A DNA stretch of 64,000 nt, from assembly GCA_030407315.1 (NCBI GenBank), contig JALQPE010001805.1, positions 62,001 to 126,000 on the forward strand. The letters are read 5' to 3'. A program made the position numbers and the translations under genes. The DNA comes from Asparagopsis taxiformis (taxonomy: Eukaryota > Rhodophyta > Florideophyceae > Bonnemaisoniales > Bonnemaisoniaceae). The stretch's first letter is position 1. Each line of letters starts with the position of its first letter. Below, one piece after another: positions 504-51,243 of the stretch. The notes beneath the pieces were generated by a model. The model was not told where the DNA came from. It worked only from the letters and a program-made list of their open reading frames with translations, and did not search any database.

Positions 504-684
504 CGCGACGAAGGAGCGGGCGACGATGGCGAAACGGAGAACGTGAGTAGAGGAGAGAGAACGTAAGAGGAAGGAAAGTGACAGCGAAGGAGAAGAACGA
601 GGAAAGAGAAAAGCAGACGCGAGAAGAAGCAACGGAAGGCATGCGTGAGAAAATGACGCGCGAGGACGCGCTGTGGAGTTAGTC

Positions 685-692
685 GGGGGGAG
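685..692 (+). other. polypurine tract of Gy-A element X
   Basis: GGGGGGAG lies directly against the TGTGG start of the LTR at 693. This is the usual plus-strand primer position at a 3' LTR, so it fixes the sense direction of element X as plus, with gag-pol expected to the left of the window. Confidence 0.7.
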
Positions 693-1495
693 TGTGGTAC
701 AATTTATTCGGTCGACACGCGCGCGCTCGTAACGACTGCGTCTGGCTGAGTCCGCATGCATCCGCGAATTAGTTAGTTAGTAAGCGAGCGTACGCGTAGC
801 GATTCTATTACGTGTCACGGCGCGCCTGCGCGAACGCGTGCGCGCGAGCGAACCTGCGAGCTTGGCGCCACGTGTAGCGCTTTTTACGAATTTCCCTTTC
901 ATTTCCCTTTTTGGGTTTTTTATGACGAAAGTCTTTTTCCCAAATATTTCCTTTTTTTTGCGTGCGAGCGAGCGGCCGCCGGCCGGCCGCGCAAGGACAG
1001 CCTGTCCTAGGTAGTTAGCTACTAATGGTTGTTCTGCTTCGCACCTTACCAATAAACAGCCAGCATCTTCGCAGCTACGAGTTAAGCGTTTAGCGAATCG
1101 CGAGGACCGATTGCGTTGACACGTTGCGTGCGGGTTGCTCACGATCGCCGACGTTCGCGTGCGCGCTGCGCATAAACCGATCGTCGAACCACGTCGCACC
1201 GTGATAGCGCGCGTTGCGTCGCACGCCACTAGGCCAGGGATTTACGACCCCTGTGTGGATCGCGTTGTGCTCGAGTTTACTCGGTGATCTCACCCTGAGA
1301 TCACGGCTTGCGCCGGCCCGCGAATCCCGTGTTGCGATCGTTCCCTACGCGTTCCGCCGTTGTACCACCCGTTCGCCAGCGCGACCGAGCGACGCGCGAA
1401 ACGAAAGTTCAACCAGCGCGTTACGGTTCACCTCGCCCTGACACGGCTGCAATTCTAGAACTCCCTTAGCGATCGCCACCCCGGCTGGTCCTACA
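693..1495 (+). repeat. Gy-A LTR (3' LTR of element X), 803 bp
   Basis: It starts TGTGGTAC and ends GGTCCTACA. It is the inverse of 30,757-31,560 with only a few differences that I could find (one A-run length, two or three substitutions). It abuts GTTAC (1496-1500), the target duplication of the insertion into Gy-C. ORFs inside it are by-products of its high GC content. Confidence 0.85.
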
Positions 1496-18200: not shown

Positions 18201-18205
18201 CAGTG

Positions 18206-19004: not shown

Positions 19005-19009
19005 CAGTG

Positions 19010-21437: not shown

Positions 21438-22099
21438 TGTGGAACGATAGTTCGTTAGACGAAGTAGCTGGTACGAGCTAGTGGACTCGCTGTCCTTACG
21501 AAACGAAACGAACAGTGCCACCCGCTGGTGTTTGACAGTATGTTAGGTAGAAAGGTAGAAGGTAGAGTGGTTAGCGAGTAGACACGAGCGTCACGACGCA
21601 ACAATCCAGGCGAGGATTACGTTAACGAACGAGGTGGTACGTCACCGGAGGCGCTCTCAACCAAGCCCGTAGGCACTACACGCGATCAGCCTCACGTGTG
21701 GCAATGGGTAGGGAGTACGCAGCTCGACGGAGACGAAGCCTCGTTAGGCGAAAACGTAAACGTAGAAGTCCGTCGTAGACTAGAGCACGTTGCCCCATCG
21801 TTAATTGTCCCCTTTCCCTTCCGGCACGATGCCAATACCTATTTAGCCACGATGGCATCGCTTTACAGTGTAAACACTGCTCGTAACGTCCCCGAATGGG
21901 AAAGGACCTTGTGGGTCGCACGCAGGGACCCGTTGGTCCGTAGGCCGTTGCCAGTATGTTCGTTGCACACGTGTGCCGGTTGCGCGCGCGCATGCGCCAG
22001 CAATGTTCGTGCATTGCTGTCGCCGGTCGTGTCCGCCGAAATTCGAATTCCGCGGAAATCGAAAATATTTGCAATTTCGGAATTGCCACGTATACTACA
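21438..22099 (-). repeat. Gy-B 3' LTR, about 662 bp
   Basis: Plus-strand TGTGGAACG...TATACTACA, placed by the abrupt end of the Cop-2 frame at 21,437 (TACGT, 21,433-21,437, likely target duplication) and by the C-rich tract at 22,100-22,115. Only one copy is in the window, so both boundaries are inferred. It is unrelated to the Gy-A LTR. Confidence 0.6.
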
Positions 22100-22115
22100 C
22101 AGCCCCACCCCCACA
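22100..22115 (-). other. probable Gy-B polypurine tract
   Basis: Plus strand CAGCCCCACCCCCACA, i.e. a purine-rich GTGGGGGTGGGG tract on the minus strand, directly before the LTR in the gag-pol direction. Confidence 0.55.
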
Positions 22116-22689
22116 CGTGGACGTCCCGGCCACGCGAGGCCCGTCAGGACGCGTCTGAGACACGGGGCCTTGGCGCCTTTTCGGGTACAACTGCGGACGT
22201 GGCAGTTGTCCCGAAAAATCTCGCTTAAACGTACGCGGCCCGGTTGGCTGATCGGTTGGCCAGCGCGTGCGCTCCGGCTCTTTCGTAATCATCGAGGCCC
22301 GCCCGTTGGCATCGTTCGTCAATGCCTCGCTTAGGCGTTTCCCTGCAACGAACTTCGTTGAATGCAGTGTCCAATTCCACCACGCGGGTGTGCTTCAATT
22401 CAGCGCGATACGAGCGCAGGCCGCGGCCCTTTCGTGAATCTGCCAGCGGGCATTACGACAACGGTCGTCCGAAGGTTATTTAAGCCGCGGCTTAACGTGA
22501 TAGCGATCGTCGCTCACCCTTCCTCTCACCATCGTCATCCAGGCCGTTGCCTTTCGTTCTCCCTTACCTTTTTCCCCCGCTGGGTACTACTACCTCCGTT
22601 CCTTTCGTTCTCTTGTTCCGTTTCGCCCGCGTGGCTCTCGTTCTCGTGCTCGTTGCACTGTTCGTCTTCGTTGCGTACGAACTGACCAC
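22116..22689. promoter_or_regulatory. leader and possible promoter of the Gy-B antisense ORF
   Basis: No gene. It holds a TATTTAAG box at about 22,478 and then a long pyrimidine-rich stretch up to the ATG at 22,690. The same kind of leader precedes the Gy-A antisense ORF. Confidence 0.35.
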
Positions 22690-24915
22690 GATGGTCACTA
22701 CGCGTAGCACCGATACCCACACTCCGCGGCCCGCCGGCTCTGCTGGAGGTGGAGCGAGGAACCCTTCGCAGGGCGCTCCCTCCCTCGTCGGGGCCGGTGC
22801 GCCGCCAGCGACGGAAGCGTCCGTCGCGCCCGCCCCATCCGTCAGGGCGGGTCAAGCCGTTGCTTCGCAGGCCGTCGCCTCTTCGTCTCGCCCGATGGCT
22901 CCGTCTCACCTGGTGGCTTCCGTGACGCCTGCCGAGGCTGCTAGGGCCGATGCCCCACGTGATGATGACGCAACGGCGTCCGACTCGGGGAATTCGTCAC
23001 CCGTCATTCCGGATGCCGCGGCCCCGTCGATGGGTGTAGCCGCGATGGCAGCGGCCGCTCTTTCACGTCTTGCTGGGGCGGCGGCCCGCACGGGCGTGCC
23101 TCGTCGTGACGGCTCGCCTCGTTCCCGCCAGGATCCCTCGCCGGAGAGTGGTGACCCCGCTGGGACAGTCGGTACCGCTTCGCGTGGCGTTGCGGCGCTT
23201 AACGTAGGCGTCCTGACCCACGCGTGGGCTGCGTTGCCTCGCGTGGCTATCACGGATGACGATCTCGCCACGTTGGCCAAAGATCGTCTAGACGCCCGCG
23301 CGGTTGTCGACTATATGCGTTCCGCCGAGGATACGTGGGGGTGTGAAGCCGGGCGTCGTTTCGCCGTCGGGCCGCCGGGATCGGAACGTTACCAGATCCC
23401 GGCGTCGATACGTTGCGACCGCTCGTGGTTGCGTGACGTCAACGACGCGATCTACGTGGATCGTATGGACGCGTTCCTGTGGAAGGGAAAGCCCGAGGAA
23501 CCGCCGTTCATCTCGGTGGCGTCCGTATTCGTGTGTCCGCGGACACTTTCCGAGAGGCAACGAGCCGAATGGAAGACTGCCCTTTCGATGAGCGTCATCT
23601 CCAAGAGCGTGGTGTCGTACGACGACCATTTCGCGCTCCGTCACGTGAACGCGGACGATTACCGCGTGTCGCACGCGTCGGCTCCGTGGGTCGTCCCGAG
23701 CGAGCTCTACTTCCCGCCGTTGCCGGAAGTGGTCGAGGAGTTCCCGTACCCCCGTGGGTCGTCCACGTTGCTACCACGCGTGGTGCACTATTTTACCGAT
23801 GCCGTGAAGGACGCGCCTGCCCCCGTGAAGGAACGTTTCCTCATGGCCGTGGATATCGAACACGCAGCGATGCTCGCGTGCTCGCTGTTCGTGGAAAGTC
23901 GTGTGTTCGGGCGCGCGTGCCTGCTGCCGGAGTCCACGTTGGACTTCCTGGCCGACTACGAATTGCTTCGTGGAATTCCGGTCGAAGGCTCCGACATGTT
24001 CGTTTCCGTTACCGGCGTGGTGGCAGAGACTCGCGGCGCCCTCGCGTTGGGGCCGGAGTATCGCGTCGTGCGCCCGGATTACGCGACCGGGGACAACCAA
24101 GAGTTCGTCCAGGTACGCAGCGACGGCGCGTACGTACCGCGGGACGCTCCCCGAGCCGAACGCCGGCGTGGCAATCGTTCTGGCTATTGGCGGCCTCGGT
24201 GGCGGCAATCGGCCTCGCGGGTCACGTTCTGGCCGTCGTGGCCATCAAGATGAAGCGCCGCGTGCGCCGGATCCTCGTGAGATTGTGCCTCGCGAGGCCA
24301 CGGAAGGGGGCGACGTTGCCCGTGTAGGTCGTCCGGAGGCGGCCACGCTGGCCGAAGGTATGCCTCGCTTCGTGAGCTTGGACGAGCGCATCTCCGATGA
24401 GGATGCCCGTCGGCTTCTCGGTACGTCGATGGCCGCTCCGCCTCGTGCGGACGGTTGGGTTATTCGTTCCCTTATTACGTCCGTGGCTCGCGCAGCCGAA
24501 GACTTCAGAGCCCAGACGTTGGACCTGACTGCCCGCTAGGCGACGGAGCGCGCGATTTCGGAACGTCTCGCTGCGGCGACTCGTGGTTACGCACCAGCCG
24601 TTGGTGGTCGTAACGATCCCTATGGATACGCAAGTGGCGGCGGCTACGGAAACCCCGTTGGGTATGGCCACGCGGCGGCGTACCTGCCACGCGACCCCGC
24701 TTCGGCGCGCCCTTCGGATTCACGCAGTCACGGGACTGCGGACCCTTACGCTGGGGATCCCGCGTCGCGTCGCGAGCGAGCCCCCGTGGTCACGCAGACC
24801 GTCGATCCGTACGCGCCGGGCTTCGTTTAGCCCAGTCGCAGCCGCAGCCACGATAGCCGCGGCGAAGGCCCTGGTCCGTATGACCCTGCGGGCAAGCGTT
24901 CGCGTCGCTACTAGG
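22690..24915 (+). pseudogene. Gy-B antisense accessory ORF
   Basis: It starts MVTTRSTDTHTPRP, with about 200 Pro/Ala/Ser-rich residues, then an ordered domain (about 200-480) containing ITDDDLATLAKDRLDARAVV and LPRVVHYFTDAVKD...MLACSLF, then an Arg/Gly-rich part and a Tyr/Gly-rich tail (NDPYGYASGGGYG) ending KRSRRY. Two blocks match the Gy-A antisense protein (ITD...LNAQTVWD and LPCVFHY...PVETR...MVACAW), so the two are probably homologous. It is convergent with Gy-B pol. This copy has one frameshift near 24,170 and TAG codons at about 24,538 and 24,829. An alternative view is a separate gag-like gene, but Gy-A has its own gag on the other strand. Confidence 0.7.
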
Positions 24916-27054
24916 TCGTTCCTAGGTTAGTTCGTAGGCCTCGTAGGCTTTAGCATCGTGTTGCTTCGTAAACTTTCGTTTGTTTCTTTGCGAAATCGCA
25001 TGGCTCCGTTGAGCTTCGTAATTCGTACTGGCAGGTCGTCTGCGTTGGGGGAGGGGTGAGCGTTAAGCCCCTCCCCACAATTTTTTGTTGTGGCGTCTAC
25101 CCCGTTGGGTTTCGTAGAGCTTTCGCAGCTCGTCCTTCGCGTTCGCGACGGCGCGTGCCCGTTGGCAGGTTCGTGGAATTCGTGACTATTCGGCGAAGCG
25201 GCGGCTTTTCACTGCGAGTGGTACGTTATCCTCGATCGTTGAGCCCGTTGGCGTGCGTATCATTTAGTAACTAACTCGGAAATCGTTTCCGCCGTCGCTC
25301 CTCGTGCGATTAACCCCGTCGGGTGCCGAATTTCGTTGAGCGTACGAGCTCCTTGGCGCGTAGCACGTCGGTGCCAAATTTAATTTGCTCCGATGAGCAG
25401 GGCGAGAAAATTCGTCGAACATCAGACCGCTCGCGCGTGAGTCGGTTTGAAGTTCTATGCCGTGGCGTGTACTCTGCTATTCGTCGCGTTTCGTTGCGAT
25501 CCCGTTGATAACGTCGTTGCCGGCGGGCTTGGCTTTTCGAATAGCCGTCGACGTCATTAGCGCCGTCGCGCTGGTCGTTTCTGCGGCTTCACGTTAGCCG
25601 GAGGCGCAATCGTTGCGCTGGTTCGCTTCGCGCGGCGGCGTCAGTTCGCCGCGGCGTCCGCGGAGCGTTTCGTTAGCTCGTCCGTTATGTGGTGCGACGT
25701 GCACCTGGGCATACGTAATGATCGCCCTCTACGCCGTTGTGTAATTTCGTTTATTCGCCTTGCGAACCCGACGGGGACGCGATTGACGAAGTCGTTTCGC
25801 ATGCCCGCGGGCGTTTTAGGCTGTTACGTGAGCCAGTTTTTCGTCCGCTCGTTGCCTTCAGCTGTGCCGTTTACGTTGGCTACCAGCTTGTACGCCGTCG
25901 CGTATTCGTATTTCGTTTCGCGGGGTCGACCCGTTAAGGTACGTCGTTATCGTTACCGACGTCCGCGTACGAGCTCGTATCCTGGCCGACGTGGCCGGTA
26001 GCGCACGCGCCTTCGAATGCGAACGAGGTTGAAGCTTCGTTAGCTTACTCGTTTGCGACGCGGGCGTGCGCGTTTTATTCTACGTGACCGTACGTGATCA
26101 GACCCTTTTGGGATCGTTCATGCGTTTCGGCTAGCCCGCGGGCTTTTCATTTTCGCGTGCCGATCGTTATGCCCGCGTGGCAGGACACCGTTGTGTCGTT
26201 TCGTGGTTGCCGTACGTGGTTACCGTGTTCGGCGTCGTGCCTTGAGGTGGCGATAGCGGTTCGCCGTCCGTTGTTGCAGCCTCGTTGGCTCGTTCGTTTC
26301 GCACGCTTTTCCCCCGCGCTTCGTGCGCTGAGACCCGTTGGTCTAGTTCGTCAGCTAACATATAGCTTCGTTCCGCTTCGTGCGTGAAGTTTCGTAATGA
26401 GGCCGTTGCCATCTTCGTTGGGGACGCGTCCGTCCTACGTGGTTTCTCCGCCTTCCGGCGTTACGTTGCCGTTAGCTCGCGAGCTGTTGGCGTTGACCTC
26501 GTTGGTCGCTGCGACTCGTTGTCAGCGGTTGTCCACGGGGACGTACGATGGCTCACACGACATGCCAAAATTACGAAATTTTCGGGGCACGCGTGCCCCG
26601 AGATTTGGCCAGATTAGCGCACTGTAGTCGGCCCGATTTTTCGTACCGTGCGTCCATGGCCCGCTGGCCCTATCATAATTTTTCGCGCAAAAAATCTGAC
26701 GTGTTGTCCGTCCGTGGCCCGTGGTGTCGTCACCTTTGCCCGTGGGACAGACAACACTGTCGAGCCAGTCGTGGCTCTTCACATCGTGTGAATCGTCCGC
26801 GCGTGGACTCGTCGTCCTATTTTTCGTTGGCGCTCGTGCCTCCACCAACGTATGGTGTCGAAAAAGAAAAGAGCGACGGCTCTAGCACGCATCACCCCCC
26901 CCCCCCAACGCAAGGGTGGACGTCCCGGCCACTCGTTGTGCCGTCGCTTCTCGTTCGTGCGGCTCGTCGCCTTCGTTTGTTGCATCGTGCGACGTCGCGT
27001 ACGCGTGCGCTTAACCCGACGCTCGTGTGCGTTTTCGGGGGCCGTCGTGACCTT
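24916..27054. other. Gy-B spacer between antisense ORF and pol
   Basis: 2.1 kb, GC-rich, with many CGTTG/CCGTTGG words and no convincing ORF. At 26,895-26,906 there is a run of 12 C, followed at 26,916-26,932 by a 17-nt word also found after the polypurine tract at 22,117-22,133. Confidence 0.6.
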
Positions 27055-28347
27055 TCACGTTGTTGCTCGTCGCACGCGTGCGAAGTATCGAGAGACGCTC
27101 TCTTCAGATACGTTCCGGCGGGGCTCCCACGTAGGGTTACGATACCCGACCCACTTCACGAGGAAGTCTAGGGTGCCGTCATCGTTTACGCGATGGTTGA
27201 GTAGTTCGTGTACTACATACGCCGTACCGTCGCGGTTCTTGTCGAGGTCTGCCTCGGTGGCATCGTATGGCTCCGGCGGGGGCGCGTTCGCCGGCGTTGG
27301 CGCGTACGCAATGCGGTCCGAGTTGACACTTTCAACTACGTCTCCTCGTTGGATGACGAACGTTCGTACGTCGTTACGTAGTACGCGGAACGGTCCCAAC
27401 GCGTGGTTGCCGAGCTTCGTGCCCTTCGTAGTCCCGTCCGTCGGGTCGATGAATACGTATTCTCCCACGCGGATGTTTCGATTCGAGACACGGACTCGCT
27501 TGTCGAAATCTCGTTTATAACGTGCCTGCGCGGCCTTCAGCGTTCGATACGCGTTGTCCATCGTTGTGGCGAGCTCACGAACGTAAGTGGCTCGCCCTCC
27601 CCCGTCGGGTAGTTCGCGGTTCGTTACCGACGTGTGTAGCGCCAACGGTGGCGGTGGATTCGTGAGAATCAAATCGAAGGGCGTTGTGCCCGTGCTCGAA
27701 TGCACATGCGTGTTGTACGCAAACTTTAACGCCGATGCGTATCGATCCCAGTCGTTCTGGTTTTCGTTCACGTAATTATGAATCATCGCCAGGATCGTCC
27801 TGTTGTAGCGCTCCACCTGCCCGTTCGTTTGGGGGTGGTACGTCGACGTAAAGACGTTCGTCACGCCGATTTCGTTGCAGACGCGCTGGAAAAACTTAGC
27901 AGCGAACTGCTTTCCGTTATCGCTTATGAGCGTCCGTGGGGGTCCATACGAGAAGACCCACGCGTTGACGAACGCGCTCGCCACGTTGGCGGAATCGATA
28001 TTTCGTAGAGGTACGACTCTGGTTAGCTTCGTAAAGCGGTCCGTTATAACGAGGATAAATCGGTTACCACGCGTGGTCTTCGTCAGCGGACCTATTATGT
28101 CGATACATAGGTCTCGCAGCTGCTCCGTAGCCGGAAATAACCGTAACGGGTTCGTCCGTTTGCGAAGCTTCACGCGGTTCTTCGCACATCCAACGCAGTT
28201 TCGTACCGTTGCGTGGATTTCGGCGGCCATCGCCGGCCAATAGTACGTCCTCCGTAGGGTATAGTACATACGCGTTTGTCCGGGATGTCCAGCGAGGACG
28301 TGGTGGTGCGTTAACTCCAGCAGCCGCGGCCGTAACGAAGCCGGCAC
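27055..28347 (-). CDS. Gy-B integrase with chromodomain
   Basis: 430 codons. The zinc-binding HHCC domain (HHVLAGHPGQTRM ... CVGCAKNR) is followed by core motifs IDIIGPL, LISDNGKQF and HPQTNGQVERYNRT with all three catalytic acidic residues, then RYKRDFDKRVRV...IRVGEYVFID, then a C-terminal chromodomain (AYVVHELLNHR ... LDFLVKWVGYRNPTWEP). All key residues are present. A chromodomain integrase usually directs insertion to modified histones. In the intact element it would be cleaved from a Pol polyprotein; here a frameshift separates it from RT. Confidence 0.9.
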   Translation of the reverse strand: MPASLRPRLLELTHHHVLAGHPGQTRMYYTLRRTYYWPAMAAEIHATVRNCVGCAKNRVKLRKRTNPLRLFPATEQLRDLCIDIIGPLTKTTRGNRFILVITDRFTKLTRVVPLRNIDSANVASAFVNAWVFSYGPPRTLISDNGKQFAAKFFQRVCNEIGVTNVFTSTYHPQTNGQVERYNRTILAMIHNYVNENQNDWDRYASALKFAYNTHVHSSTGTTPFDLILTNPPPPLALHTSVTNRELPDGGGRATYVRELATTMDNAYRTLKAAQARYKRDFDKRVRVSNRNIRVGEYVFIDPTDGTTKGTKLGNHALGPFRVLRNDVRTFVIQRGDVVESVNSDRIAYAPTPANAPPPEPYDATEADLDKNRDGTAYVVHELLNHRVNDDGTLDFLVKWVGYRNPTWEPRRNVSEESVSRYFARVRRATT

Positions 28348-28440
28348 AACGATTTGTGTACGTTCCTCGTCGTGAGGGTTCCGGCGTCGGAGTAAGCCGT
28401 CGTGGCCTTCGAAGAATGCAGCGTCCTGCGTCTCGGACTG

Positions 28441-30105
28441 TCATGTCAGTCTCGTTTGACAGAACGCGTCCTCGCGTTGAGCTTCGATAAGCTCGTCCCT
28501 CGTAATGGGAAGCTGAACGTCAGCTGGTGGCACGCGTGCCGAATCGTCTTCAGCAGCGCGCTGTTCGTCGAGGAAATCCGGTTCCTCGTCAAGGACGTCA
28601 TCGAGCGACGCGTCGCGGTTGAACTCGCGTTCATCGTGGCCAGCCGTCGTGGCTGGTGTTCGTTCGTCACGAATCGTGTTCGACGGGTCGTCGTGACCCC
28701 TGGCATTCATTGCCTGCTTTCGTGTGGACGTCGTTCGTCCTTGCCCACTTTGTGTGGGTTGTCGCCGACTGCGAGTCGTCACGAGGACTGCGTCCCCGTA
28801 CGATGGTACGTCATCGTCGACGGGTCGACCGTCGTCATACGTAGATATCACGCGTGATAAAGCGTCAGGTACCTGTTGCACGCGCCCAGGCCTGTACGTA
28901 ACCTCAAAATCGAATTCGGCAACGCGGAGCCTCCATCGTAGTAGTCGTCCGGACGCGTCCGTCAACGTCATCAGCCAACGCAAGGCTTCGTGGTCCGTAC
29001 GTACGGTAAATCGTTGACCCTCTACGTAGGGTCGGAGCGACGTTATCGCCCAAACGACGGAGTAGCACTCGCGCTCCGTTGCCGAATAACCGCGTTCGGT
29101 TTCGTTAAGGGTCTTCGACCAGTACCCAATCGGCACCCATTCGTTGGGCTTGTCTTCGTTTTGCTGCTGGAGCAACGTAGCTCCCAGCTGATACGCCGAC
29201 GCGTCGGTATCGATCATAAACGGACGCCCCGCCTTCGGAAGGTGTAATACTGGTGGCGAAACCAGTATTGTCTTTAACGTCTCGAACGCGTTCGTTTGCG
29301 CGTTAGTTGGATTCGTCCAATCGGGGGAAGCGTCCTTCTTCAACATCGTGTTGAGTGGCCGAGCGATCTCGGCATACGCCTTTACGAAGCGGCGGTGAAC
29401 GTTGGCCGCGCCCAAAAACGATCGACATTGCGTCTTATCCCGCGGGAACGTAGCCGTACGAAAGGTTTCCTTGTTCCGTGCTGCGACGTGCAGCTTCCCT
29501 GGGGTAATCACGTGCCCCAGGTAGTCAACTCGTGGTTGAAAGAACGAGCACTTCGCGAGCTTTAACGTTACCCCTGCTGCGCGTAGCAGGGAAAGTACCT
29601 GGTCAACGTGACTCAGGTGAGACTCGAGGTCTTTCGAAAAGACAATTACGTCGTCTAAGTAGACCAGGCACGATTGCCAACGTACTCCGGAGAGGATTAT
29701 GTCCAACGTCCGCTGAAACGTAGCGGGGGCATTTCGTAGCCCGAATGGCATTCGCACATAGCGATACGTTCCCATGAAAGACGTAAACGTTGTCTCATCA
29801 CGGTCCTCGGCGGAGACGGGCACTTGCCAGTAACCGGCGTTACAATCGAGTGTCGTAAAGATGGCTGCGTCTCCAAGCGAATCGAGGCAATCTTCCATAC
29901 GAGGAAGCGGGTACGAATCAGCGATCGTTTTCGCGTTCAAACGTCTGTAATCGACACAGAAACGTAGGGATCCGTCCTTCTTCGGCACCAACACGATTGG
30001 TGACGCCCATTCGCTGGACGCGGGTTCGATAACCCCTTCGTTGAGCATCTTCGTGATTTGCTCCTCGGCTATCGTGCGTAGAGCCGGACCCTGACGATAG
30101 GGCAT
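28441..30105 (-). CDS. Gy-B reverse transcriptase and RNase H
   Basis: 554 codons. RT: FCVDYRRLNAKT, FTTLDCNAGYWQVPV (first Asp), FGLRNAPATFQR, LVYLDDVIVFS (YLDD), LGHVITPGKL. RNase H: PFMIDTDASAYQLGA, ERGYSATERECYSVVWA, TVRTDHEALRW and PDALSRV. The catalytic residues are in place. The C-terminal 100 residues are an acidic linker to integrase. Frameshifts lie on both sides (30,105-30,184 and 28,347-28,441). Confidence 0.9.
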   Translation of the reverse strand: MPYRQGPALRTIAEEQITKMLNEGVIEPASSEWASPIVLVPKKDGSLRFCVDYRRLNAKTIADSYPLPRMEDCLDSLGDAAIFTTLDCNAGYWQVPVSAEDRDETTFTSFMGTYRYVRMPFGLRNAPATFQRTLDIILSGVRWQSCLVYLDDVIVFSKDLESHLSHVDQVLSLLRAAGVTLKLAKCSFFQPRVDYLGHVITPGKLHVAARNKETFRTATFPRDKTQCRSFLGAANVHRRFVKAYAEIARPLNTMLKKDASPDWTNPTNAQTNAFETLKTILVSPPVLHLPKAGRPFMIDTDASAYQLGATLLQQQNEDKPNEWVPIGYWSKTLNETERGYSATERECYSVVWAITSLRPYVEGQRFTVRTDHEALRWLMTLTDASGRLLRWRLRVAEFDFEVTYRPGRVQQVPDALSRVISTYDDGRPVDDDVPSYGDAVLVTTRSRRQPTQSGQGRTTSTRKQAMNARGHDDPSNTIRDERTPATTAGHDEREFNRDASLDDVLDEEPDFLDEQRAAEDDSARVPPADVQLPITRDELIEAQREDAFCQTRLT

Positions 30106-30183
30106 TGAACGTATGGGCCGCGTGCCCGGTTCGAGATCGATTCGATGCTCCGTAGCATTGATTTCGCCCAGGCGTCTGCTCGT

Positions 30184-30756
30184 TCACATTGACGAATGTG
30201 TGCCTAGCATCTCGTGGATGCGCTTTCGTAAATCCTCGTCGTCGAGGTGCGACAAATCGATTGTCGACTGCCAATTCGTGACGGGGTCGTTCCCCTTTTC
30301 GTTGACCAACGGGTCTGGCGTTTCGTCGCCCAACCCGTTCGTATTCGTCCGCGTCGTCGCGTCGACTAGCGGTAGGTTCAAAACCTTCGCGAGGGCTTCG
30401 CCGCCCTCACGCTTGAGTGGGACGATTCCCAACGGGGAGCGTACCGCGTACGCAATCGTCGTGCCCTTCGGCAATTCGCGGTCCTTCTTCGTGAAGTTCG
30501 ACACGATAATAGAGAATGTCTCTCTCGGTCCTACGTCGACCACTCCGTTGGCTATGCGTAGCCCATGCCGAAACTGTACCGACGCTTTCGGTTCGAGGAA
30601 CACGAGTCCTGTTGCGTCCGTCGTCACGTTGACGTTCCGTTGCGACATCGCTGGTACACGCGTGTACTTCGTCAGGCGAACCGAGAACGTTCGGCTCGGC
30701 CGATTCGAGGCCGCGTTACGCTCGCGGCGTTTCGGGTGTTCCACGTTTGGATTCGT
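30184..30756 (-). pseudogene. Gy-B pol N-terminal part, truncated by the Gy-A LTR
   Basis: The frame is open up to the LTR at 30,757 and ends at 30,184. It corresponds to the linker between protease and RT (RELPKGTTIAYAV, HEMLGTHSS before the expected IEL-type motif). The protease active site (DTG) lies further upstream and is not here. TTCGT at 30,752-30,756 (ACGAA in sense) is the expected target duplication of the Gy-A copy that cut it. Confidence 0.7.
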
Positions 30757-31560
30757 TGTAGGACCAGCCGGGGTGGCGATCGCTAAGGGAGTTCTAGAAT
30801 TGCAGCCGTGTCAGGGCGAGGTGAACCGTAACGCGCTGGTTGAACTTTCGTTTCGCGCGTCGCTCGGTCGCGCTGGCGAACGGGTGGTACAACGGCGGAA
30901 CGCGTAGGGAACGATCGCAACACGGGATTCGCGGGCCGGCGCAAGCCGTGATCTCAGGGTGAGATCACCGAGTAAACTCGAGCACAACGCGATCCACACA
31001 GGGGTCGTAAATCCCTGGCTTAGTGGCGTGCGACGCAACGCGCGCTATCACGGTGCGACGTGGTTCGACGATCGGTTTATGCGCAGCGCGCACGCGAACG
31101 TCGGCGATCGTGAGCAACCCGCACGCAACGTTTCAACGCAATCGGTCCTCGCGATTCGCTAAACGCTTAACTCGTAGCTGCGAAGATGCTGGCTGTTTAT
31201 TGGTAAGGTGCGAAGCAGAACAACCATTAGTAGCTAACTACCTAGGACAGGCTGTCCTTGCGCGGCCGGCCGGCGGCCGCTCGCTCGCACGCAAAAAAAA
31301 AGGAAATATTTGGGAAAAAGACTTTCGTCATAAAAAACCCAAAAAGGGAAATGAAAGGGAAATTCGTAAAAAGCGCTACACGTGGCGCCAAGCTCGCAGG
31401 TTCGCTCGCGCGCACGCGTTCGCGCAGGCGCGCCGTGACACGTAATAGAATCGCTACGCGTACGCTCGCTTATTAACTAACTAATTCGCGGATGCATGCG
31501 GACTCAGCCAGACGCAGTCGTTACGAGCGCGCGCGTGTCGACCGAATAAATTGTACCACA
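30757..31560 (-). repeat. Gy-A 3' LTR, 804 bp
   Basis: Plus strand TGTAGGACCAGCC...ATTGTACCACA. It is nearly identical in inverse to 693-1495, and to 43,848-44,656 over its first two thirds, but with a different U3-end subtype from the latter. The polypurine tract at 31,561-31,568 shows that this is a 3' LTR for the minus-strand gag-pol. Confidence 0.85.
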
Positions 31561-31568
31561 CTCCCCCC
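31561..31568 (-). other. Gy-A polypurine tract
   Basis: CTCCCCCC on the plus strand (GGGGGGAG in sense), directly next to the LTR. It agrees with gag-pol on the minus strand. Confidence 0.7.
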
Positions 31569-31749
31569 GACTAACTCCACAGCGCGTCCTCGCGCGTCAT
31601 TTTCTCACGCATGCCTTCCGTTGCTTCTTCTCGCGTCTGCTTTTCTCTTTCCTCGTTCTTCTCCTTCGCTGTCACTTTCCTTCCTCTTACGTTCTCTCTC
31701 CTCTACTCACGTTCTCCGTTTCGCCATCGTCGCCCGCTCCTTCGTCGCG

Positions 31750-34545
31750 ATGGCGCACGACGATGAATCTCTTCCTGGCTGGCTTCGTGCCGGCATCGCT
31801 CCCGGCGACGAAATGACGACGCCTACACACACGCCGACTGCCGCTCCGCGCTTCGCAACTCCTTTGCCTGCAAGTCCTGAGAGCCCGTTCTCCCTTCCCT
31901 TAGCCCAGGCATCATCCATCAGTGCGCCTGTTCCGGCGGTCGCGAGCGGTTCCGATGCGAACAGCATCGATGCGACACCAAACGTCGTCGAGACCGTGGA
32001 CGTCACGGGTACGCCGGCGTCTGCGGCTGGCGGTCATTCCTCTATCGGAGTTCCTCTCCGCTCCATACCCGCTCCTTCCTCCGTATCCCTTCCGTCGGCC
32101 GCGCAAAATGCTCCCATCCCGACGCCGCGCGCTCGTTATGAAGATCCGTCTGCGTTTCGCTTTCTGCTGCGTACGCTGCCAACGTGGCCGGAGCTAAGCC
32201 AGTTACAGTATTATCCGCGCCGCTTTCAATGGGACCGTATCACCGACGTTAATCGCTACGCCGTCCTGCCCGGTCATCTCAACGCGCAAACGGTATGGGA
32301 CGCGCGACGTGAATCGGCGTTGTGCGATTTGGCCGTACCCGCGAACTTGCCATGCGACGCCTATTCCCTCGAAGACGCTGCTGACGAACGGCTCGTACGC
32401 CACTTGGCGAGGCTCCGTACAATGCGTCGCGACGAATTCGCGCATCTCGATCCGTGGGCGGCAGCACCAAGCGCTGGCTTCTTATTAGACGGGGGCGTCC
32501 CGTGGAACGACGTGGAACACGAGGGGCGACGAGCGAGCCTTGGTTTCTTGACGCGAGTATGCGCCCCGAGGCGCGTCGTGAATTACGCTTGCGTCGCACG
32601 TTCGGATACTTCGTCACACACCGCGACGTCGAGTTCCGTGAATTCCCTGAAGATCGTATCGGCGCTTTCTTCCCTCGTTACGACGCGCGCGACTGGCCTG
32701 AAGCACTCGAATCCTTGTCGGTCCCTTTGCCTTGCGTCTTCCATTACGCGCCGTCTGTCCTCCTTGGTCTTAACGTTCCTGTCGAAACGCGCTCGTACTT
32801 CTGGGCCGTTGCCTTAAGCGAATGGGTCGTAATGGTAGCCTGTGCGTGGCTCCATGTCGCTTACGTCGAGCGTCGCATAGTGCGCCTAAGCGATAAACTT
32901 ATCGCGGGGATCGAGCGCGTCGGCGGTCTTACGCAGCGGTTCGTATTCTACGGCACATTTGGAAAGTCTTCTATCGGAATATCGCGCTTGCGCATGGGAC
33001 GAAACGCCCGTCTTCGACGTCGCGCCGGGTATCGATTTCAACGAAGGCGGCCAATGGTTGCCGTGGAACGCGGAACGCGGCAGTGTGGATTGGGCGCACG
33101 GTTCGCTCGGTGTCCACCGTAACACAGAGATTCCGCACCTTCTGTTAAAATCGCCGCGAAACCCGTCGCGCAGCGCGTTCGCGCATTTAGAAGCCAATGA
33201 CGTCGTGACCGTCGATGCCGTATTGTCCGCGTTATCAACCAACGAGCTACATGTGATGCGTGCGACCAACTCGCGAGAGTACGCGCAATACCTCGGCATG
33301 GCGGCGTTGCTTGCCGTAGAGCGTCGGCGCTTTCGAGACGGTCGGTATTCGCTATTTTCGGATCCACCTCGAGCTCCGATCGACGTTACTCAGCTCGACG
33401 CAGCGCTGCGGGCGGAATACGTCAAGGTATACAACGAACTGCAGGAACTGAAGAAGGCCACTCAGGGTCAACGTACTGCGGCGGCGTCGGGCGAGGCGAG
33501 CGCTAGTGGGGCCGCGGCGAGTGCTGCAGCCAACGTAGTTTCAGCCATGGTTGACGACGCAATAGCAAGTGCGGCCGCGGTCGCTGAGGGCGTGGCATCG
33601 AATGCACCAGATACGGCTGAACTGCGAACTCGACTGGCTGAGGCCGAACGAGTCCACGAAGAAGCGTTGTCGCGCGTGACGTCCATTACGAAAGCTCGCG
33701 AGGACGCCTTAGTCCGCCTCGACGAAGCGAATCAGGCGCGCGACGCCGCGCACAAGACGCGAGACGAGGCTCTGTCGCTTTTGCAAGGGGCTAGGGAGGC
33801 GCTTACAAAGACCGAGGTCCGCGAGGTGGCGTTAAAACGAAAGGTCGACGAAGATGCGGTGCGTATCGAACGCATGCAGAAAGACATCAGTATGATGATG
33901 GGTCGGGCGGGCGCGCACAGGAGAAGCGAAGAAGACCATCGCGCTAAGGTGACGGAGCTTCAAGCTCGCTGCGACGCGGCTTCTGTGGCGCGCGAAACGG
34001 CGGAACGGGCGCTTGTTGAAGTCGAAACTAACCTTGGGGCTGAGAGGGAACGAGCGGCTAGTCGCCTTGCCGCGGTGCGTGGCGAGTACCAAGCGTGCGA
34101 GCGGGAGACCGTACGACAAGTCCAAGATACTATCGAGCGCGCGCACCGTTTGGGTACGGCGTTAAATAACGTCGTAGGTTACCTGCAGCGGTCCCCCGCG
34201 GGGTCGGTTGACGAACAAGAGTCGGCCGGCGAAACACAGTCTGTAAGTGGGCTGCGCGCGGAAGCATCGGTGCGTGGCGCCTCCGAGGGCGTTGGCGTGG
34301 GGCGCGGCGGCGCTCGCCCTACGACGCGCTCGCGTGCGGCGGCAGCTTCGGCGGGTCGGGCAAGCATTCCTCCACTTCGAATTGGCGTACATGATGGGCG
34401 CGTCGTTCGGGTGTTGAATTCCGAGCGGCGACGCGGTCACCAGGCAGATACGGCTTCAAGCCGTGCTCGTTCGCGCGGTACTGCGGGTAGTTCGTCGAGC
34501 CGTCGCACGCGTCGGGACGGCGACACGCGCGCACCACAGTCTTAG
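31750..34545 (+). pseudogene. Gy-A antisense accessory ORF
   Basis: Starts at ATG 31,750 after a pyrimidine-rich leader. Pro/Ala/Ser-rich N-terminus (about 130 residues), ordered domain with ITDVNRYAVLPGHLNAQTVW and LPCVFHYAPSVLLGLNVPV, then a long Ala/Glu/Arg-rich coiled coil (heptad-like LAEAERVHEEALSRV...ARDAAHKTRDEALSLL, about 33,600-34,150), and a basic Ser/Arg tail ending DGDTRAPQS. The frame leaves register near 32,530 and returns near 32,955, so this copy has two compensating shifts; the part from 32,959 to 34,545 is open throughout. It converges on Gy-A pol. No similarity to env, gag or pol that I can see. Confidence 0.7.
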
Positions 34546-36336: not shown

Positions 36337-38058
36337 TCAATTGCGTGGCGCACGGGATTGCATCCTGCGGCTCTTGAGTCGTGTGCTCGCGCGGCTGGGC
36401 GACGTGGTTCGCTGCGCGTTGTCGCGCTTCTCCCTGCGGGCGGGTACCTTCGGCGGGTTCTTTCGGCGGTTGTGCGGCGTTGCGGGCTGGTTCGCGATAT
36501 CGTGCGCGGGGGCCTTAGGCGTACGTCGGTTCAGGTCTTTACGGAAACGTGCGACCAACGGCGCTGGCAGCGAGCCCTCGGGCTCCCACGTATCTTCGCG
36601 CGGCGAATATCCTTTCTATCTTACGCGAAAGACGGATGCGCCAGCGTCGTCGATGCCTTCGGCCGTTAGTTTGTGGATCATAAATTCGCGCGTCCCGTAC
36701 CCAGACTCTGGGTTGACCTTGCGCGTGTTCTCGAGGTCGCGTTCGTCTCGCCGCGTCGCGTCGTCGGCGTTCTCCGCGTCGTTGGTATCTTCCTCGCCGC
36801 CGGGCGAATCAGGCGCGCTTGTCGCGTTACGCGGCGCGAAGCGGATACGATCGGAGCTAACGAGTTCGGGTACGCCGTCTATTACGATTTCGTAAGTATG
36901 GCCATGACAACCTATTACCGGGAAAGGGCCAGAGACGGGGTAATCCAGCTTCGATGCACGCGTCTCTTCACTTCGCTGCGCTTGCGTCGTCGCTCCCGCG
37001 CGGGTATCCAAGTACACTTGGTCACCCACCTTAATATCCTTATTCACCGCGCGTACGCTGCGGTCGAAGTCCCGTTTATATCGCGCTTGCGCCTTCTTCA
37101 ACGCGCTTGCCGCGCGCGCGTAGGCGTCTGATAGCCGCGCTAGGAATTCCATACGAAGGAATGGCGTACTGCGAATCGTGTCCACTTGTTCCGTACCCAG
37201 CGACACAGGGTAGCGCGTGAGCGTAAGCTCGAACGGCGACGTATTCGTCGAGCGGTGTATCGCACGTTTGTAGGCGTACGCTAGCGCATCCAAATGCTCA
37301 TCCCAGTCCTTTCGCTCTTCGTCGACCTAATGGCGCAGCGTCGCGACGATGGTACGATTCATTCGCTCGACTTGTCCGTTCGATTGCGGATGATACGTCG
37401 TCGTGAATATGTTTCGCGTTCCCATAAGCGCGCACGTTTCCTGAAATAACTTCGAGCGAAACTGCGGTCCGTTGTCAGAAAGCAGCGTGCGCGGCGATCC
37501 GTATAGAAAGACCCAGTCTCTGCAAAAGGCCTTCGCGACGGCGAGCGCAGATACGCGTCCGAGCGCGATGAGTCGGCAAAGCTTGCTATAGCGATCGGCG
37601 ATTACGAGTACGAAGCGGCGTTGGCGCGGAGTCTCGGGTAGCGGACCCAGAATATCGATAGCGACGTCTTCGAGCGGGCGCGTTGCGGGAAAGAGCTTCA
37701 GGGCGTTCGTGTGGCGATATTGCGTAACGCGGTTACGTGCGCACGCGTCGCACTGTCTCACTGTAGTGTAGACGTCTACGCTCATCATCGGCCAGTAGTA
37801 TGCACGTCGAATTGCGTCGTACATGCGTCGCGCGCCCGGGTGTCCTGCAGTCACCGCGTAGTGGTTAGCTCGCAGAATACGCCCCTTAATCGCTTCGGGA
37901 ACGACTATCTGCGTGGCGTTGTCGAGCGGAGCGGTCCTCATGAGAATCCCATCGGAGGATAGGTGAAAACGCGATTGCGGCGCGGTTTCGACATCGCGCT
38001 TCGCGTTTTGGCAGAATTCGTCCGTCGCTTGCTCGCGAATCCACTCGTCAGTGGACAC
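36337..38058 (-). pseudogene. Gy-A integrase with chromodomain, two in-frame stops
   Basis: HHCC domain (HYAVTAGHPGARRM ... CDACARNR), core motifs IDILGPL, LLSDNGPQF and HPQSNGQVERMNR, then RYKRDFDRSVRAV...IKVGDQVYLD and a chromodomain (REFMIHKLTAEG ... DTWEPEGSLPAPLV). TAG codons interrupt it at 37,327-37,329 and 36,616-36,618; the frame is the same on all sides. A frameshift separates it from RT-RNase H at 38,058-38,097. The D, D, E triad is present. Confidence 0.85.
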
Positions 38059-38096
38059 GGGCGGTTCGATGCACGACCGAGTTGCCAGTAGTCAGT

Positions 38097-40565
38097 CTAG
38101 ACTCGGGTAGTATTCTGCGTAGTCGCATAGTAGCGCGGTATGGTTCGCGCATAAGCGTCCGCATGCGGTTCAACGATGTTCGCGGCGTCGAAGCAGGGTA
38201 TCTCGTCCGGTATTTCCGTCTCGTCACCGCTTCGCGTGGCCATTCGCGAGAGCGCGTCGGCGATAACATGGCGTTTACCCTTTTTATATTCGACGTCGAA
38301 CTCGAACTCGGCGAGTCGCAATCGCCAGCGCGCGAGTCGTCCTTCCGCAGAGGTCATGTTTAGAATCCAGCGCAGCGAATTGTGGTCCGTGCGAACCGTG
38401 AACTTCCGTCCTTCCAGATACGCGCGTAATAGTAACACTGCCCATACCACCGCGAGGCATTCGCGTTCCGTCGTCGAATAATTTCGCTCTGCGTCGTTAA
38501 GCGTGCGCGACCAGTATCCGACTGGATGTAATGTGTCTTCGTCTGCGTCTAGCTGTAGTAACGCGCATCCGATTTGGCCTTGCGACGCGTCAGTGTCGAG
38601 CACATACGGGTGCCCTTCGCGCGGTAGACGGAGGATAGGCGGAGATATCATCGCTTGTCGCAATGATTCGAACGCGCGCGTTTGCTCTGGCGTCGGCGCG
38701 GGTAGGTTATCTCCTTGGTCCTTCTTCAGCAGCTGCGTAAGCGGCGCTGCTACGAACGCGAATTTTTCAACGAATCGGCGGTATACGTTACAAGTTCCCA
38801 GAAAGCTGCGCAGCTGCGTTTTCGTCGTCGGATACGTCGCATCGCACAGCGCGTCGCATTTCGTCGTCGGTACGGATAGCTTCCCCGGCGAAATAGTATG
38901 TCCCAGGTAGTCCACCGAGCGTTTGAAAAACTCGGTCTTCGCGAATTTAAGCGAAACGCCAGCGCGTCCGAGGATTCCCAGTATCTCGTCGACGTGATGC
39001 ACGTGCGCATTCACGTCGGCGGAGAAGATGATTACGTCATCCAAGTAGACAAGGCAATGCTGCCATTTCACGTTCGCGAGCAAGATATCGAGCGCGCGCT
39101 GAAACGTCGCGGGCGCGTTCGATAGTCCAAAGGGCATACGGCGGACGCGATACGTACCAACATGCGACGTAAACGTAGTCTTATCGCGGTCGGCGTGCGC
39201 TACCGGGATTTGCCAGTATCCCGAATTGCAATCCAGCGTAGTGAAAACCGTCGCGTTACCGAGCGAGTCGACGCAATCGTCCATGCGCGGAATCGGATAC
39301 GCGTCCTTGACGGTGGCGGCGTTTAAGCGGCGGTAGTCGATGCAGAAGCGGGAACTCCCGTCCTTCTTAGTCACGACTACGACCGGGCTCGCCCATTCCG
39401 ATGTAGCAGGTTCGATCACTCCGGCGCGGAGCATCTTATCCACTTGCGTACGGATAATTTCGCGCGACGCGTGTCCGGCGCGGTACGGCGGTTGGTTGAC
39501 GGGGGTCGCCCCCGGAACCAGTTCGATGCGGTGTTCTGTCGCGTGGATGGCTCCGAGTGTGCCATTCCACATTCGCTCGTGCTTTCGCAGCATCTCGATA
39601 ATTCGCGCGTGTAGGTCGTCGTCTACTCGCTCATCGCGTAGCGTCGCGCGTAGTAGATCTTCCCAATGCGCCGTCGCATTCGCAATTCCGTCGGCTTCGC
39701 GCGGGTCCGGCGGGTTCGTCGCGTCGCGTGGCGTCGCATCGTCGGGCGGTCGGTCTTGCGGAGTCGGCGCCTCTTGCGCCACTTGTAGGCAACCTACGGG
39801 GTTGGGCACTGCGGAGCCCACCTTCATGCCTTTGGGCAATACCTGTAGGCGGGTGCCGGCGTTGTGCACATGCACACTGAAGGGCACGTTCCTTTTAACC
39901 AGCGTTTCACCGTTGGCTAGACGAAGCAACTTCTGCCCGTAGAGGTCGGTCGCGGGTATCGTGATGCAGCGTCCGTCAGCGCCCGTGGTGACTTCGATAG
40001 CTCGCGTCGCGTGCGGCGGAATCGATGTGCGGCGCGCAACGCGGATTGGTGCGAAATCTGTTGGTCGGGTAGTCTTGGGGGTCGGTGCGCGGCGCGGTTT
40101 CGTCGGCGTGCGTGGGAGCATCGGGACGTGGTCTCCATAGCGGGTTCGCAACGCGCGCTGCGGCCCAGTATAGATCATCCGAACCACACGGTCGATGAAG
40201 TCTGCTCCCAGAATGCAAGGGACGGATAAGCGCGGCATCACCAGGAAAGTTTGAAGGTGCGCGCGGGCACCTAGAAGAACGCTAAGTCGCAACGACGCGT
40301 TCGGCGCGAGGCGTCGTCCATTCGTGTCGATAATCGCGCAGCGCAGCGTCGGCGGCGTAGCGTGGCGCTTCCAATCAGCGCCTAATACGTTCTCGCGAAT
40401 GAGGCTCGGGCCCGCGCCAGTATCAAGCACAGCGGTCACCGCGGTGGCCGTACTTAGATTATATCCGACGCGTACCTCGAGTTTGTAGTTCGCGGTAGGG
40501 GTCTGAAACAGGACCACTGTTTCGGGTGGTAACGGAGGCGGTCTTTCGCGCGGCGGTTGCGTCAT
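38097..40565 (-). CDS. Gy-A protease, reverse transcriptase and RNase H
   Basis: 822 codons. The protease is near the N-terminus (AVLDTGAGPSL at about residue 46, then CILGADFIDR). A linker contains HATEHRIELVPG. RT: FCIDYRRLNAATV, FTTLDCNSGYWQIPV, FGLSNAPATFQR, LVYLDDVIIFS, LGHTISPGKL. RNase H: PYVLDTDASQGQIGC, ERNYSTTERECLAVVWA, TVRTDHNSLRW, ADALSRM. All catalytic residues are present. It lies in the -1 frame relative to gag, whose stop is at 40,610, so frameshifting could join them. It ends early against integrase. Confidence 0.9.
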   Translation of the reverse strand: MTQPPRERPPPLPPETVVLFQTPTANYKLEVRVGYNLSTATAVTAVLDTGAGPSLIRENVLGADWKRHATPPTLRCAIIDTNGRRLAPNASLRLSVLLGARAHLQTFLVMPRLSVPCILGADFIDRVVRMIYTGPQRALRTRYGDHVPMLPRTPTKPRRAPTPKTTRPTDFAPIRVARRTSIPPHATRAIEVTTGADGRCITIPATDLYGQKLLRLANGETLVKRNVPFSVHVHNAGTRLQVLPKGMKVGSAVPNPVGCLQVAQEAPTPQDRPPDDATPRDATNPPDPREADGIANATAHWEDLLRATLRDERVDDDLHARIIEMLRKHERMWNGTLGAIHATEHRIELVPGATPVNQPPYRAGHASREIIRTQVDKMLRAGVIEPATSEWASPVVVVTKKDGSSRFCIDYRRLNAATVKDAYPIPRMDDCVDSLGNATVFTTLDCNSGYWQIPVAHADRDKTTFTSHVGTYRVRRMPFGLSNAPATFQRALDILLANVKWQHCLVYLDDVIIFSADVNAHVHHVDEILGILGRAGVSLKFAKTEFFKRSVDYLGHTISPGKLSVPTTKCDALCDATYPTTKTQLRSFLGTCNVYRRFVEKFAFVAAPLTQLLKKDQGDNLPAPTPEQTRAFESLRQAMISPPILRLPREGHPYVLDTDASQGQIGCALLQLDADEDTLHPVGYWSRTLNDAERNYSTTERECLAVVWAVLLLRAYLEGRKFTVRTDHNSLRWILNMTSAEGRLARWRLRLAEFEFDVEYKKGKRHVIADALSRMATRSGDETEIPDEIPCFDAANIVEPHADAYARTIPRYYATTQNTTRV

Positions 40566-40609
40566 CGCGCGCGGCGTGTCCGTTGAGTGGAGAGGAGTCG
40601 GCCCACCCG

Positions 40610-43847: not shown

Positions 43848-44656
43848 TGTAGGACCAGCCGGGGTGGCGATCGCTAAGGGAGTTCTAGAATTGCAGCCGT
43901 GTCAGGGCGAGGTGAACCGTAACGCGCTGGTTGAACTTGCGTTTCGCGCGTCGCTCGGTCGCGCTGGCGAACGGGTGGTACAACGGCGGAACGCGTAGGG
44001 AACGATCGCAACACGGGATTCGCGGGCCGGCGCAAGCCGTGATCTCAGGGTGAGATCACCGAGTAAACTCGAGCACAACGCGATCCACACAGGGGTCGTA
44101 AATCCCTGGCCTAGTGGCGTGCGACGCAACGCGCGCTATCGCGGTGCGACGCGGTTCGACGATCGGTTTATGCGCAGCGCGCATGCGAACGTCGGCGATC
44201 GTGAGCAACCCGCACGCAATGTTTCAACGCAATCGGTCCTCGCGATTCGCTAAACGCTTAACTCGTAGCTGCAAAGATGCTGGCTGTTTATTGGTAAGGT
44301 GCGAAGCAGAACAACCATTAGTAGCTAACTACCTAGGACAGGTTGTCCTTGCGCGGCCGGCCGGCGGCCGCTCGCTCGCACGCAAAAAAAAGGAAATATT
44401 TGGGAAAAAGACTTTCGTCATAAAAAACCCAAAAAGGGAAATGAAAGGGAAATTCGTAAAAAGCGCTACACGTGGCGCCGGGCTCGCGGTTTCGTGGCAA
44501 CCTACGCGCGCACGCGCTCGCATCGACGCTCCGTGACACGTAATCAAAACGCCACGCGTACGCTCGCTTACTAACTAACTAAGATAGATGCACGCGAATT
44601 CATCCCGACGCAATCGCAGCGAACGCGCGCGCGTCGACGAAATAGATTGCGTTACA
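43848..44656 (-). repeat. Gy-A 5' LTR, 809 bp
   Basis: Plus strand TGTAGGACC...GCGTTACA. The first 600 bp are nearly identical to 30,757-31,360, while the last 200 bp match the subtype of the solo LTR at 18,206-19,004. The 5-bp flanks (CCAGT / CGTTG) do not match, so it is not a simple insertion in place. Confidence 0.8.
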
Positions 44657-46316: not shown

Positions 46317-46325
46317 TAGCCTTTT

Positions 46326-47122: not shown

Positions 47123-47219
47123 CGTACTGCTTGAACCTGTTTCGCTTTGACAAGCTTCGGAATTTGCGTCGTCTGCCCTTTCGACTGATTCCCAACTTCT
47201 CCTGCAGGATAGAAATTTC

Positions 47220-51191: not shown

Positions 51192-51243
51192 TTCCCAATT
51201 CTTTTTTCGCTCAACAAATCTTCGTAAATAATTTTCTCAATAT

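What the first reader, a model, noticed from the sequence alone, without database searches (positions are those of the whole stretch)
22690..34545. A conserved antisense gene in two different chromovirus families
Seen: in Gy-B (22,690-24,915) and Gy-A (31,750-34,545, and again at 1-503) a long ORF runs opposite to gag-pol, between pol and the 3' LTR, with about 2 kb of non-coding spacer before pol. LTRs and polypurine tracts fix the sense strand. The LTRs are unrelated, yet the antisense proteins share layout (Pro/Ala/Ser-rich start, ordered middle, low-complexity or coiled-coil end) and two motif blocks (ITD-x-L-x-A-x-V-x-D; LP-x-V-x-HY ... PV-x-x-R ... M-x-AC). Known: some plant Tat/Ogre elements carry antisense ORFs near the 3' LTR. 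Inference: an old accessory protein, perhaps a structural or regulatory partner made from its own promoter.
Basis: partly seen in the sequence, partly recalled or inferred. Interest (0 to 1): 0.88.

Follow-up and report, generated by a model that had tools for sequence, protein, structure and literature searches.

The report
Antisense accessory gene in Ty3/gypsy retrotransposons
Two families of jumping genes each carry, on the strand opposite their normal genes, an extra protein gene that selection has kept intact, and one family also has many copies that have cleanly lost it, so it probably helps from a distance rather than being needed in every copy.

Summary
Both Ty3/gypsy families carry a long ORF opposite to gag-pol between pol and the 3' LTR. 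The window copies are broken; naturally open copies encode 934 aa (Gy-A) and 742 aa (Gy-B). Selection is clear: dN/dS 0.03-0.06 between Gy-A subfamilies with saturated synonymous sites, 0.11-0.27 among Gy-B cores. Among the best-scoring hits the core is open in 118 of 118 (Gy-B) and 87 of 96 (Gy-A). Every paired pol is in opposite orientation (37 of 37; 45 of 45). A TATA-like box lies about 205-215 bp upstream.

So the gene is dispensable in cis.

Shared ancestry of the two proteins is plausible, not proven: it beats 200 shuffles, but one unrelated pair scores nearly as high. AlphaFold failed; Pfam and PDB gave only weak, sub-threshold hits. Best reading: a trans-acting, probably nuclear accessory factor resembling plant Tat/Retand antisense ORFs by analogy, not sequence. 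Host unidentified; red alga is a weak guess.

The parts
21438..22101 (-). Gy-B 3' LTR (about 660 bp; sense TGTGTAGTATACG...GTTCCACA)
   Evidence: flanks beyond the end differ between copies; 22 genomic places have a base other than the tract's C before the start
22102..22116 (-). Gy-B polypurine tract (sense GTGTGGGGGTGGGGC)
   Evidence: same tract in 22 of 30 fetched copies, variants in 4, start word not found in 4
22477..22484 (+). TATA-like box TATTTAAG of the antisense gene, Gy-B
   Evidence: at -213 to -215 in 27 of 27 copies with a recognisable start (30 fetched); promoter role inferred
22691..24253 (+). Gy-B antisense ORF, window copy open for 520 codons then frameshifted; related sequence to about 24.9 kb; open copies elsewhere 742 aa
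27055..28440 (-). Gy-B integrase with chromodomain
   Evidence: Integrase_H2C2, rve, Chromo
28441..30183 (-). Gy-B reverse transcriptase / RNase H
   Evidence: RVT_1, RT_RNaseH
30757..31560 (-). Gy-A 3' LTR (sense TGTGGTAC...CCTACA)
31545..31552 (+). TATA-like AATAAATT of the antisense gene, inside the edge of the Gy-A LTR
   Evidence: at -204/-205 in 5 of 5 open copies; promoter role inferred
31750..34545 (+). Gy-A antisense ORF, window copy broken into three frames; open copies elsewhere 934 aa (low-complexity start, core, coiled-coil-like part, basic tail)
36616..38091 (-). Gy-A integrase; chromodomain-like end interrupted by a stop in this copy
   Evidence: chromodomain-like by eye
38097..40688 (-). 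Gy-A protease / reverse transcriptase / RNase H
43848..44651 (-). Gy-A 5' LTR (about 93.6% identical to the 3' LTR)
1..776 (-). N-terminal part of the antisense ORF of a second, inverted Gy-A copy

Best explanation
Each family carries a genuine accessory gene on the antisense strand between pol and the 3' LTR. Shown: it encodes a long protein held by strong purifying selection; it sits in fixed orientation to pol; Gy-B also exists as an amplified form without it. [quoted passage not shown] Copies that lose it spread by using protein made by other copies.
For: dN/dS 0.027-0.064 between Gy-A subfamilies, 0.11-0.27 among five Gy-B cores, 0.14 and 0.245 within families with other forward frames above 1.5. 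Open core in 118 of 118 scored Gy-B hits and 87 of 96 scored Gy-A hits. Opposite orientation to integrase in 37 of 37 and 45 of 45 pairs. Conserved TATA-like box. Deletion form with one junction in 4 of 4 fetched copies and 40 of 41 listed hits; 8 of the 9 that pair with a listed integrase lie in the longest (1533-codon) pol frame.
Against: No RNA or protein data. No fold: AlphaFold mean pLDDT 29.3 and 32.7. The amplified deletion form equally fits a gene that is dispensable altogether in that lineage. The nuclear role rests on basic clusters and analogy; Gy-B shows no heptad-like stretch by my simple test, Gy-A only three short ones. One reverse frame also shows a low ratio (0.19 and 0.33) because its third positions coincide, though it holds 17-21 stops per copy in the 11 copies printed. 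The hit lists are capped and favour well-preserved copies.
Confidence: 0.55

Rival explanations
1. The gene acts in cis or mainly as antisense RNA (double-stranded RNA or silencing control); the protein is secondary.
For: Antisense transcription itself has been proposed as regulatory in plant elements (PMC7264820, parts 1 and 2 of 3 read).
Against: Selection acts on the protein reading: synonymous sites saturate while amino acids hold; an RNA-only function would not do that. The deletion form spreads without it.
Confidence: 0.12
2. The gene benefits the element only marginally or restrains it (for example copy-number control), so losing it is advantageous to the copy that loses it.
For: The deletion removes the putative promoter and the whole ORF up to its stop codon, and the derivative amplified to at least 40 places.
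Against: 37 of 92 integrase hits pair with a listed ORF, and 6 of 10 sampled from the other 55 carry it (4 open, 2 broken or partial); selection is strong.
Confidence: 0.2
3. The two proteins are unrelated genes, acquired twice from host or virus; the shared motifs are chance. (Not exclusive of the best explanation.)
For: A-B profile score 31.6 is close to an unrelated pair at 29.2, and the window's single Gy-B frame scores only 22.9 against the Gy-A profile; models gave no fold to compare.
Against: Same slot, orientation and layout; local alignment score reached by 4 of 1000 shuffles, profile score by 0 of 200; the two best non-self hits of the Gy-B profile among 44 window frames are Gy-A antisense pieces (30.8, 24.8; best unrelated 24.2).
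Confidence: 0.4
4. Non-coding artefact: a long antisense frame kept open by GC-rich composition.
For: GC-rich region; the window holds many spurious frames.
Against: The other five frames hold 5-29 stops in the 11 open copies printed; dN/dS is far below 1 only in this frame and its mirrored-third-position frame.
Confidence: 0.02

Closest known systems
Plant aORF-3R of Tat/Retand, Grande, RIRE2, PvRetro13
   Same: [quoted passage not shown] own upstream promoter and nuclear product reported for Grande gene23; an SMC-like domain in some (PMC7264820, parts 1-2; PMC11963269, passages). The Gy-A coil gives weak SMC hits too, far below the curated cut-off.
   Different: Retand is described as non-chromovirus and restricted to flowering plants; its proteins carry TRP28 (PF04195), not found here. 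The passages of PMC11963269 mention non-autonomous elements and two clusters without a TRP28 ORF; whether any is an amplified ORF-only deletion like this one I did not see.
Boty of Botrytis cinerea / Sclerotinia sclerotiorum (aORF-3R)
   Same: Antisense ORF near the 3' LTR outside plants (named in PMC7264820).
   Different: No sequence compared here, and whether Boty has a chromodomain was not checked.
Antisense genes of HTLV-type retroviruses
   Same: Antisense protein gene, promoter in the 3' LTR, nuclear product (cited in PMC7264820 and in passages of PMC11963269).
   Different: No sequence relation looked for; analogy only.
Chromoviruses (chromodomain Ty3/gypsy)
   Same: Gy-B integrase ends in a Pfam chromodomain; Gy-A has a matching but stop-interrupted end.
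   Different: Extra antisense 3' gene; from memory, extra ORFs in plant chromoviruses were reported rare and 5' (Steinbauerova et al.; paper not held).

Membership tests
Plant-type antisense aORF-3R | ORF antisense to gag-pol between pol and 3' LTR | tested here: met
   37 of 37 and 45 of 45 pairs opposite
Plant-type antisense aORF-3R | Present in most copies of the family | tested here: inconclusive
   capped lists; Gy-B: 37 of 92 integrase hits paired, 6 of 10 sampled others carry it, 10 of 92 known deletion form; Gy-A: 45 of 149 paired
Plant-type antisense aORF-3R | TRP28 (PF04195) domain, as in Retand | tested here: not met
   no PF04195 hit, (E up to 5; HMMER filters drop most above 0.1; E up to 1)
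Plant-type antisense aORF-3R | Own antisense promoter, transcription shown | not testable with these tools
   only a conserved TATA-like box
Plant-type antisense aORF-3R | Nuclear localisation of the protein | not testable with these tools
   basic clusters only
Chromovirus | Chromodomain at integrase C-terminus (Gy-B) | tested here: met
   Pfam Chromo E 7.6e-8
Chromovirus | Chromodomain at integrase C-terminus (Gy-A) | tested here: inconclusive
   no Pfam Chromo hit in the open piece; recognisable sequence continues past a stop, judged by eye
One antisense protein family shared by Gy-A and Gy-B | Significant profile similarity | tested here: inconclusive
One antisense protein family shared by Gy-A and Gy-B | Shared predicted fold | tested here: inconclusive
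   both models below pLDDT 50 throughout; no fold search run

The most novel reading that the evidence does not exclude
An ancient antisense accessory gene shared by two Ty3/gypsy families (one with a proven chromodomain) probably outside flowering plants, acting in trans. Its old, amino-acid-conserved alleles are exchanged between elements with nearly identical pol, and deletion derivatives live off it as satellites within the same family.
Probability: 0.4. Interest if true: 0.75.

Novelty: new variant of a known kind. Interest (0 to 1): 0.6.

Why it matters
The review I read (PMC7264820) calls the functions of antisense genes of LTR retrotransposons unknown. Here selection is measured directly, and nature supplies the comparison: one family with and without the gene, in one genome, with similar pol. 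That makes 'does it act in trans, and for what?' testable. It also suggests that such genes arose, or persisted, beyond flowering-plant Tat elements.

Tried and rejected
Viral contigs: no relatives. Protein database: the Gy-A core found only P0001, the Gy-B core none (8000 candidates scored each). P0001 is 198 of 199 residues identical to a copy in this genome, so it is not an independent species' homologue as I first took it. Pfam and NCBIfam gave only sub-threshold hits (for example DUF3138 E 0.0045 on a low-complexity piece, SMC E 0.0005 on the coil); PDB three hits at E 0.04-0.09 for Gy-A and none for Gy-B. The Gy-B LTR start was first guessed wrongly twice (TGAGCG: 1 place; after the GGGAAAGGGGA tract: 0 places); the third guess held (22 places). 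Splicing as origin of the deletion was considered and rejected by eye: no GT..AG at the junction, a microhomology of about 4 bases instead. To look for ORF-less Gy-A copies I fetched 2 of 104 unpaired sites: one lies in gag-like sequence (by eye) and is uninformative, the other carries a fourth Gy-A subfamily. So ORF loss was not established for Gy-A; the scoring cap can explain the 104 of 149 unpaired hits.

Limits: genome counts come from capped scoring (best 40 to 149 of 403 to 4800 candidates). Samples lean toward copies like the queries, and open copies were chosen for the dN/dS sets. dS above 1 is saturated, so those ratios are rough. The gag and 5' ends of deletion-form copies were not read. 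The host was not identified.
Full report
What is there. The window (bases 62001-126000 of contig C1683 of a 141.5 Mb, 3156-contig assembly) holds two Ty3/gypsy families in minus orientation. Gy-A runs from its 5' LTR (43848-44651) through frames in gag position (no Pfam hit), PR-RT-RNaseH (38097-40688) and integrase (36616-38091) to its 3' LTR (30757-31560). Gy-B has no 5' end in the window: RT 28441-30183, integrase with chromodomain 27055-28440, 3' LTR 21438-22101. On the plus strand, between pol and the 3' LTR, lie ATG 22691 (Gy-B) and ATG 31750 (Gy-A).

The ORFs are longer than the window shows. Of 30 fetched Gy-B loci, 20 have one open frame: 17 of 742 aa, one of 749, two of 733. Of 20 fetched Gy-A loci, 5 have 932-934 aa by my rule (start MAHDD, at least 850 aa); a sixth (L054) has an open 1011-codon frame with an altered start. 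The window copies are among the broken ones.

Selection. Among the 5 open Gy-A copies pooled dN/dS is 0.142; among the 20 open Gy-B copies 0.245, lowest in codons 301-400 (0.038) and highest in the C-terminal tail (0.55). The other forward frames give 1.6-2.8, and one reverse frame whose third positions coincide gives 0.19 and 0.33. That reverse frame has 17-21 stops per copy in the 11 copies printed. A protein search listed Gy-A hits in groups at about 97-100, 87-89 and 86-87% identity; 87 of 96 scored hits have no stop in the 440-residue core. For 12 core sequences (9 newly fetched plus 3), pairs from different subfamilies have dN 0.04-0.12, dS 1.15-3.2, ratio 0.027-0.064. For Gy-B, 118 of 118 scored hits have no stop across the 341-residue core (1029 candidates). 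A codon-shifted pattern found more distant Gy-B copies (10 hits, 0 in the reversed control). Two of the four fetched (L069, L070) are open, two are broken. The ten pairs among window, L010, L020, L069 and L070 give ratios of 0.11-0.27.

Position. Of 92 scored Gy-B integrase hits, 37 have a listed antisense core within 8 kb on the 3' side, all 37 on the opposite strand at 2.6-3.3 kb. For Gy-A, 45 of 149 integrase hits pair with a listed core (lists), all 45 opposite, at 3.3-4.4 kb.

Copies without the gene. Ten of the 55 unpaired Gy-B sites were fetched at the expected place: 4 carry an open core, 2 a broken or partial core, 4 none. In one of the four, read through to the integrase side, the sequence jumps from just after the ORF's stop codon to a point 225 bp short of the LTR, removing ORF, leader and TATA-like box while keeping polypurine tract and a 661 bp LTR. 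All four share the same junction. A search with a stretch across it lists 41 matches, 40 of them spanning the junction at 96-100% identity; 1963 candidates, 40 scored. Nine pair with a listed integrase in the same orientation, and 8 of these 9 lie in a 1533-codon open pol frame; with the one fetched copy not in that list, 10 of 92 integrase hits are known deletion forms. Hence the gene is not needed in cis for amplification. Supply in trans is the simplest reading that keeps the selection result; loss of need is the rival.

Mosaic history. In one Gy-A element of another subfamily, RT (397 aa) differs from the window's by dS 0.22 and the first 118 integrase residues by 0.50, while its antisense core differs from open copies of the window's subfamily by dS 1.9-2.1. 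In one Gy-B element integrase (412 aa) dS is 0.066 and antisense core dS 0.57. Old antisense alleles therefore sit on younger pol genes, as template switching would give. This rests on one element per family.

Are the two proteins related? BLASTP gives 58 residues at 31-34%, E 0.023 to 1.2 in the 40 rows printed (2 of 5 queries). Smith-Waterman reaches 63 against a shuffle mean of 38.1; 4 of 1000 shuffles reach it, 2 of 1000 block shuffles (P0001: score 56, 19 and 12 of 1000). HHalign: P 0.0038 with near-identical copies; with the enlarged alignments P 0.0018, probability 14.9%, over 52 columns; 0 of 200 column shuffles reach its score (best 25.2 against 31.6), reversed 17.3. Against all 44 window frames of 180 codons or more, the Gy-B profile's two best non-self hits are Gy-A antisense pieces (30.8 and 24.8; best unrelated 24.2). 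But the Gy-A profile's best non-self hit is the Gy-A integrase zinc-finger region (29.2), above the window's single Gy-B frame (22.9). So: plausible, about 60%, not proven. The pols are 57% (RT, 464 columns) and 53% (integrase, 214 columns) identical.

What it may do. Layout: P/A/G/S-rich start, core, in Gy-A a coiled-coil-like stretch (weak SMC hits at residues 570-810) and basic clusters near both C-termini. TATTTAAG stands 213-215 bp before the ATG in 27 of 27 Gy-B copies with a recognisable start (30 fetched); AATAAATT 204-205 bp before it in 5 of 5 open Gy-A copies, within the LTR edge; my start word scored none of the 20 Gy-A copies in the wider count, so only the 5 are counted. Nuclear, trans-acting help is inference.

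Literature. [quoted passage not shown] function unknown, Grande gene23 nuclear with its own promoter. PMC11963269 (passages, including parts of its abstract) finds antisense ORFs in all Retand clusters, 97% with TRP28. PMC6317226 was searched for five terms on extra or antisense ORFs, no occurrence. Searches (listings only) showed no title or abstract start on antisense genes in chromoviruses outside plants; that is absence from those listings only.

Host. Unknown.

Noticed in passing
1-1495, 1496-4663, 30757-47475: A second Gy-A copy has its 5' LTR piece at 45123-45397 and its 3' LTR at about 693-1495, each bordered by GTTAC (by eye); a third gypsy element is split with parts at 1442-4373 (+) and 45531-47218 (-) and matching stretches 4409-4663 / 47220-47475 (98%). 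This looks like an inversion between Gy-A copies.
   Followed up: partly
18200-19010: Solo Gy-A-type LTR bordered by CAGTG on both sides (by eye), beside copia-like sequence.
   Followed up: partly
50709-64000: Copia-like element repeated in tandem with a period of about 4.7 kb at 99.6-100% identity; either a real array sharing ends or an assembly effect.
   Followed up: no
8783-10953 and 13572-16316: Large inverted repeat (pieces about 84-100% alike) with internal repeated copies; origin unknown.
   Followed up: no
5880-6274: Array of a 43 bp tandem repeat.
   Followed up: no
47668-49770: 700-codon open frame with a sub-threshold HPC2/ubinuclein (HUN) hit (E 0.8); possibly a host gene.
   Followed up: partly
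Gy-A antisense core residues 163-189 and integrase 37330-38091: The antisense core and the element's own integrase zinc-finger region align in 27 columns (HHalign P 0.0024). Probably chance, but it sets the noise level for the A-B match.
   Followed up: partly
L089: A fourth Gy-A antisense subfamily; the metagenome protein P0001 is 198 of 199 identical to it, so that contig comes from this species or a very close one.
   Followed up: yes
L010 4066-4776: Direct repeat of about 365 bp (84% alike) in the spacer between the antisense ORF and pol of Gy-B.
   Followed up: no
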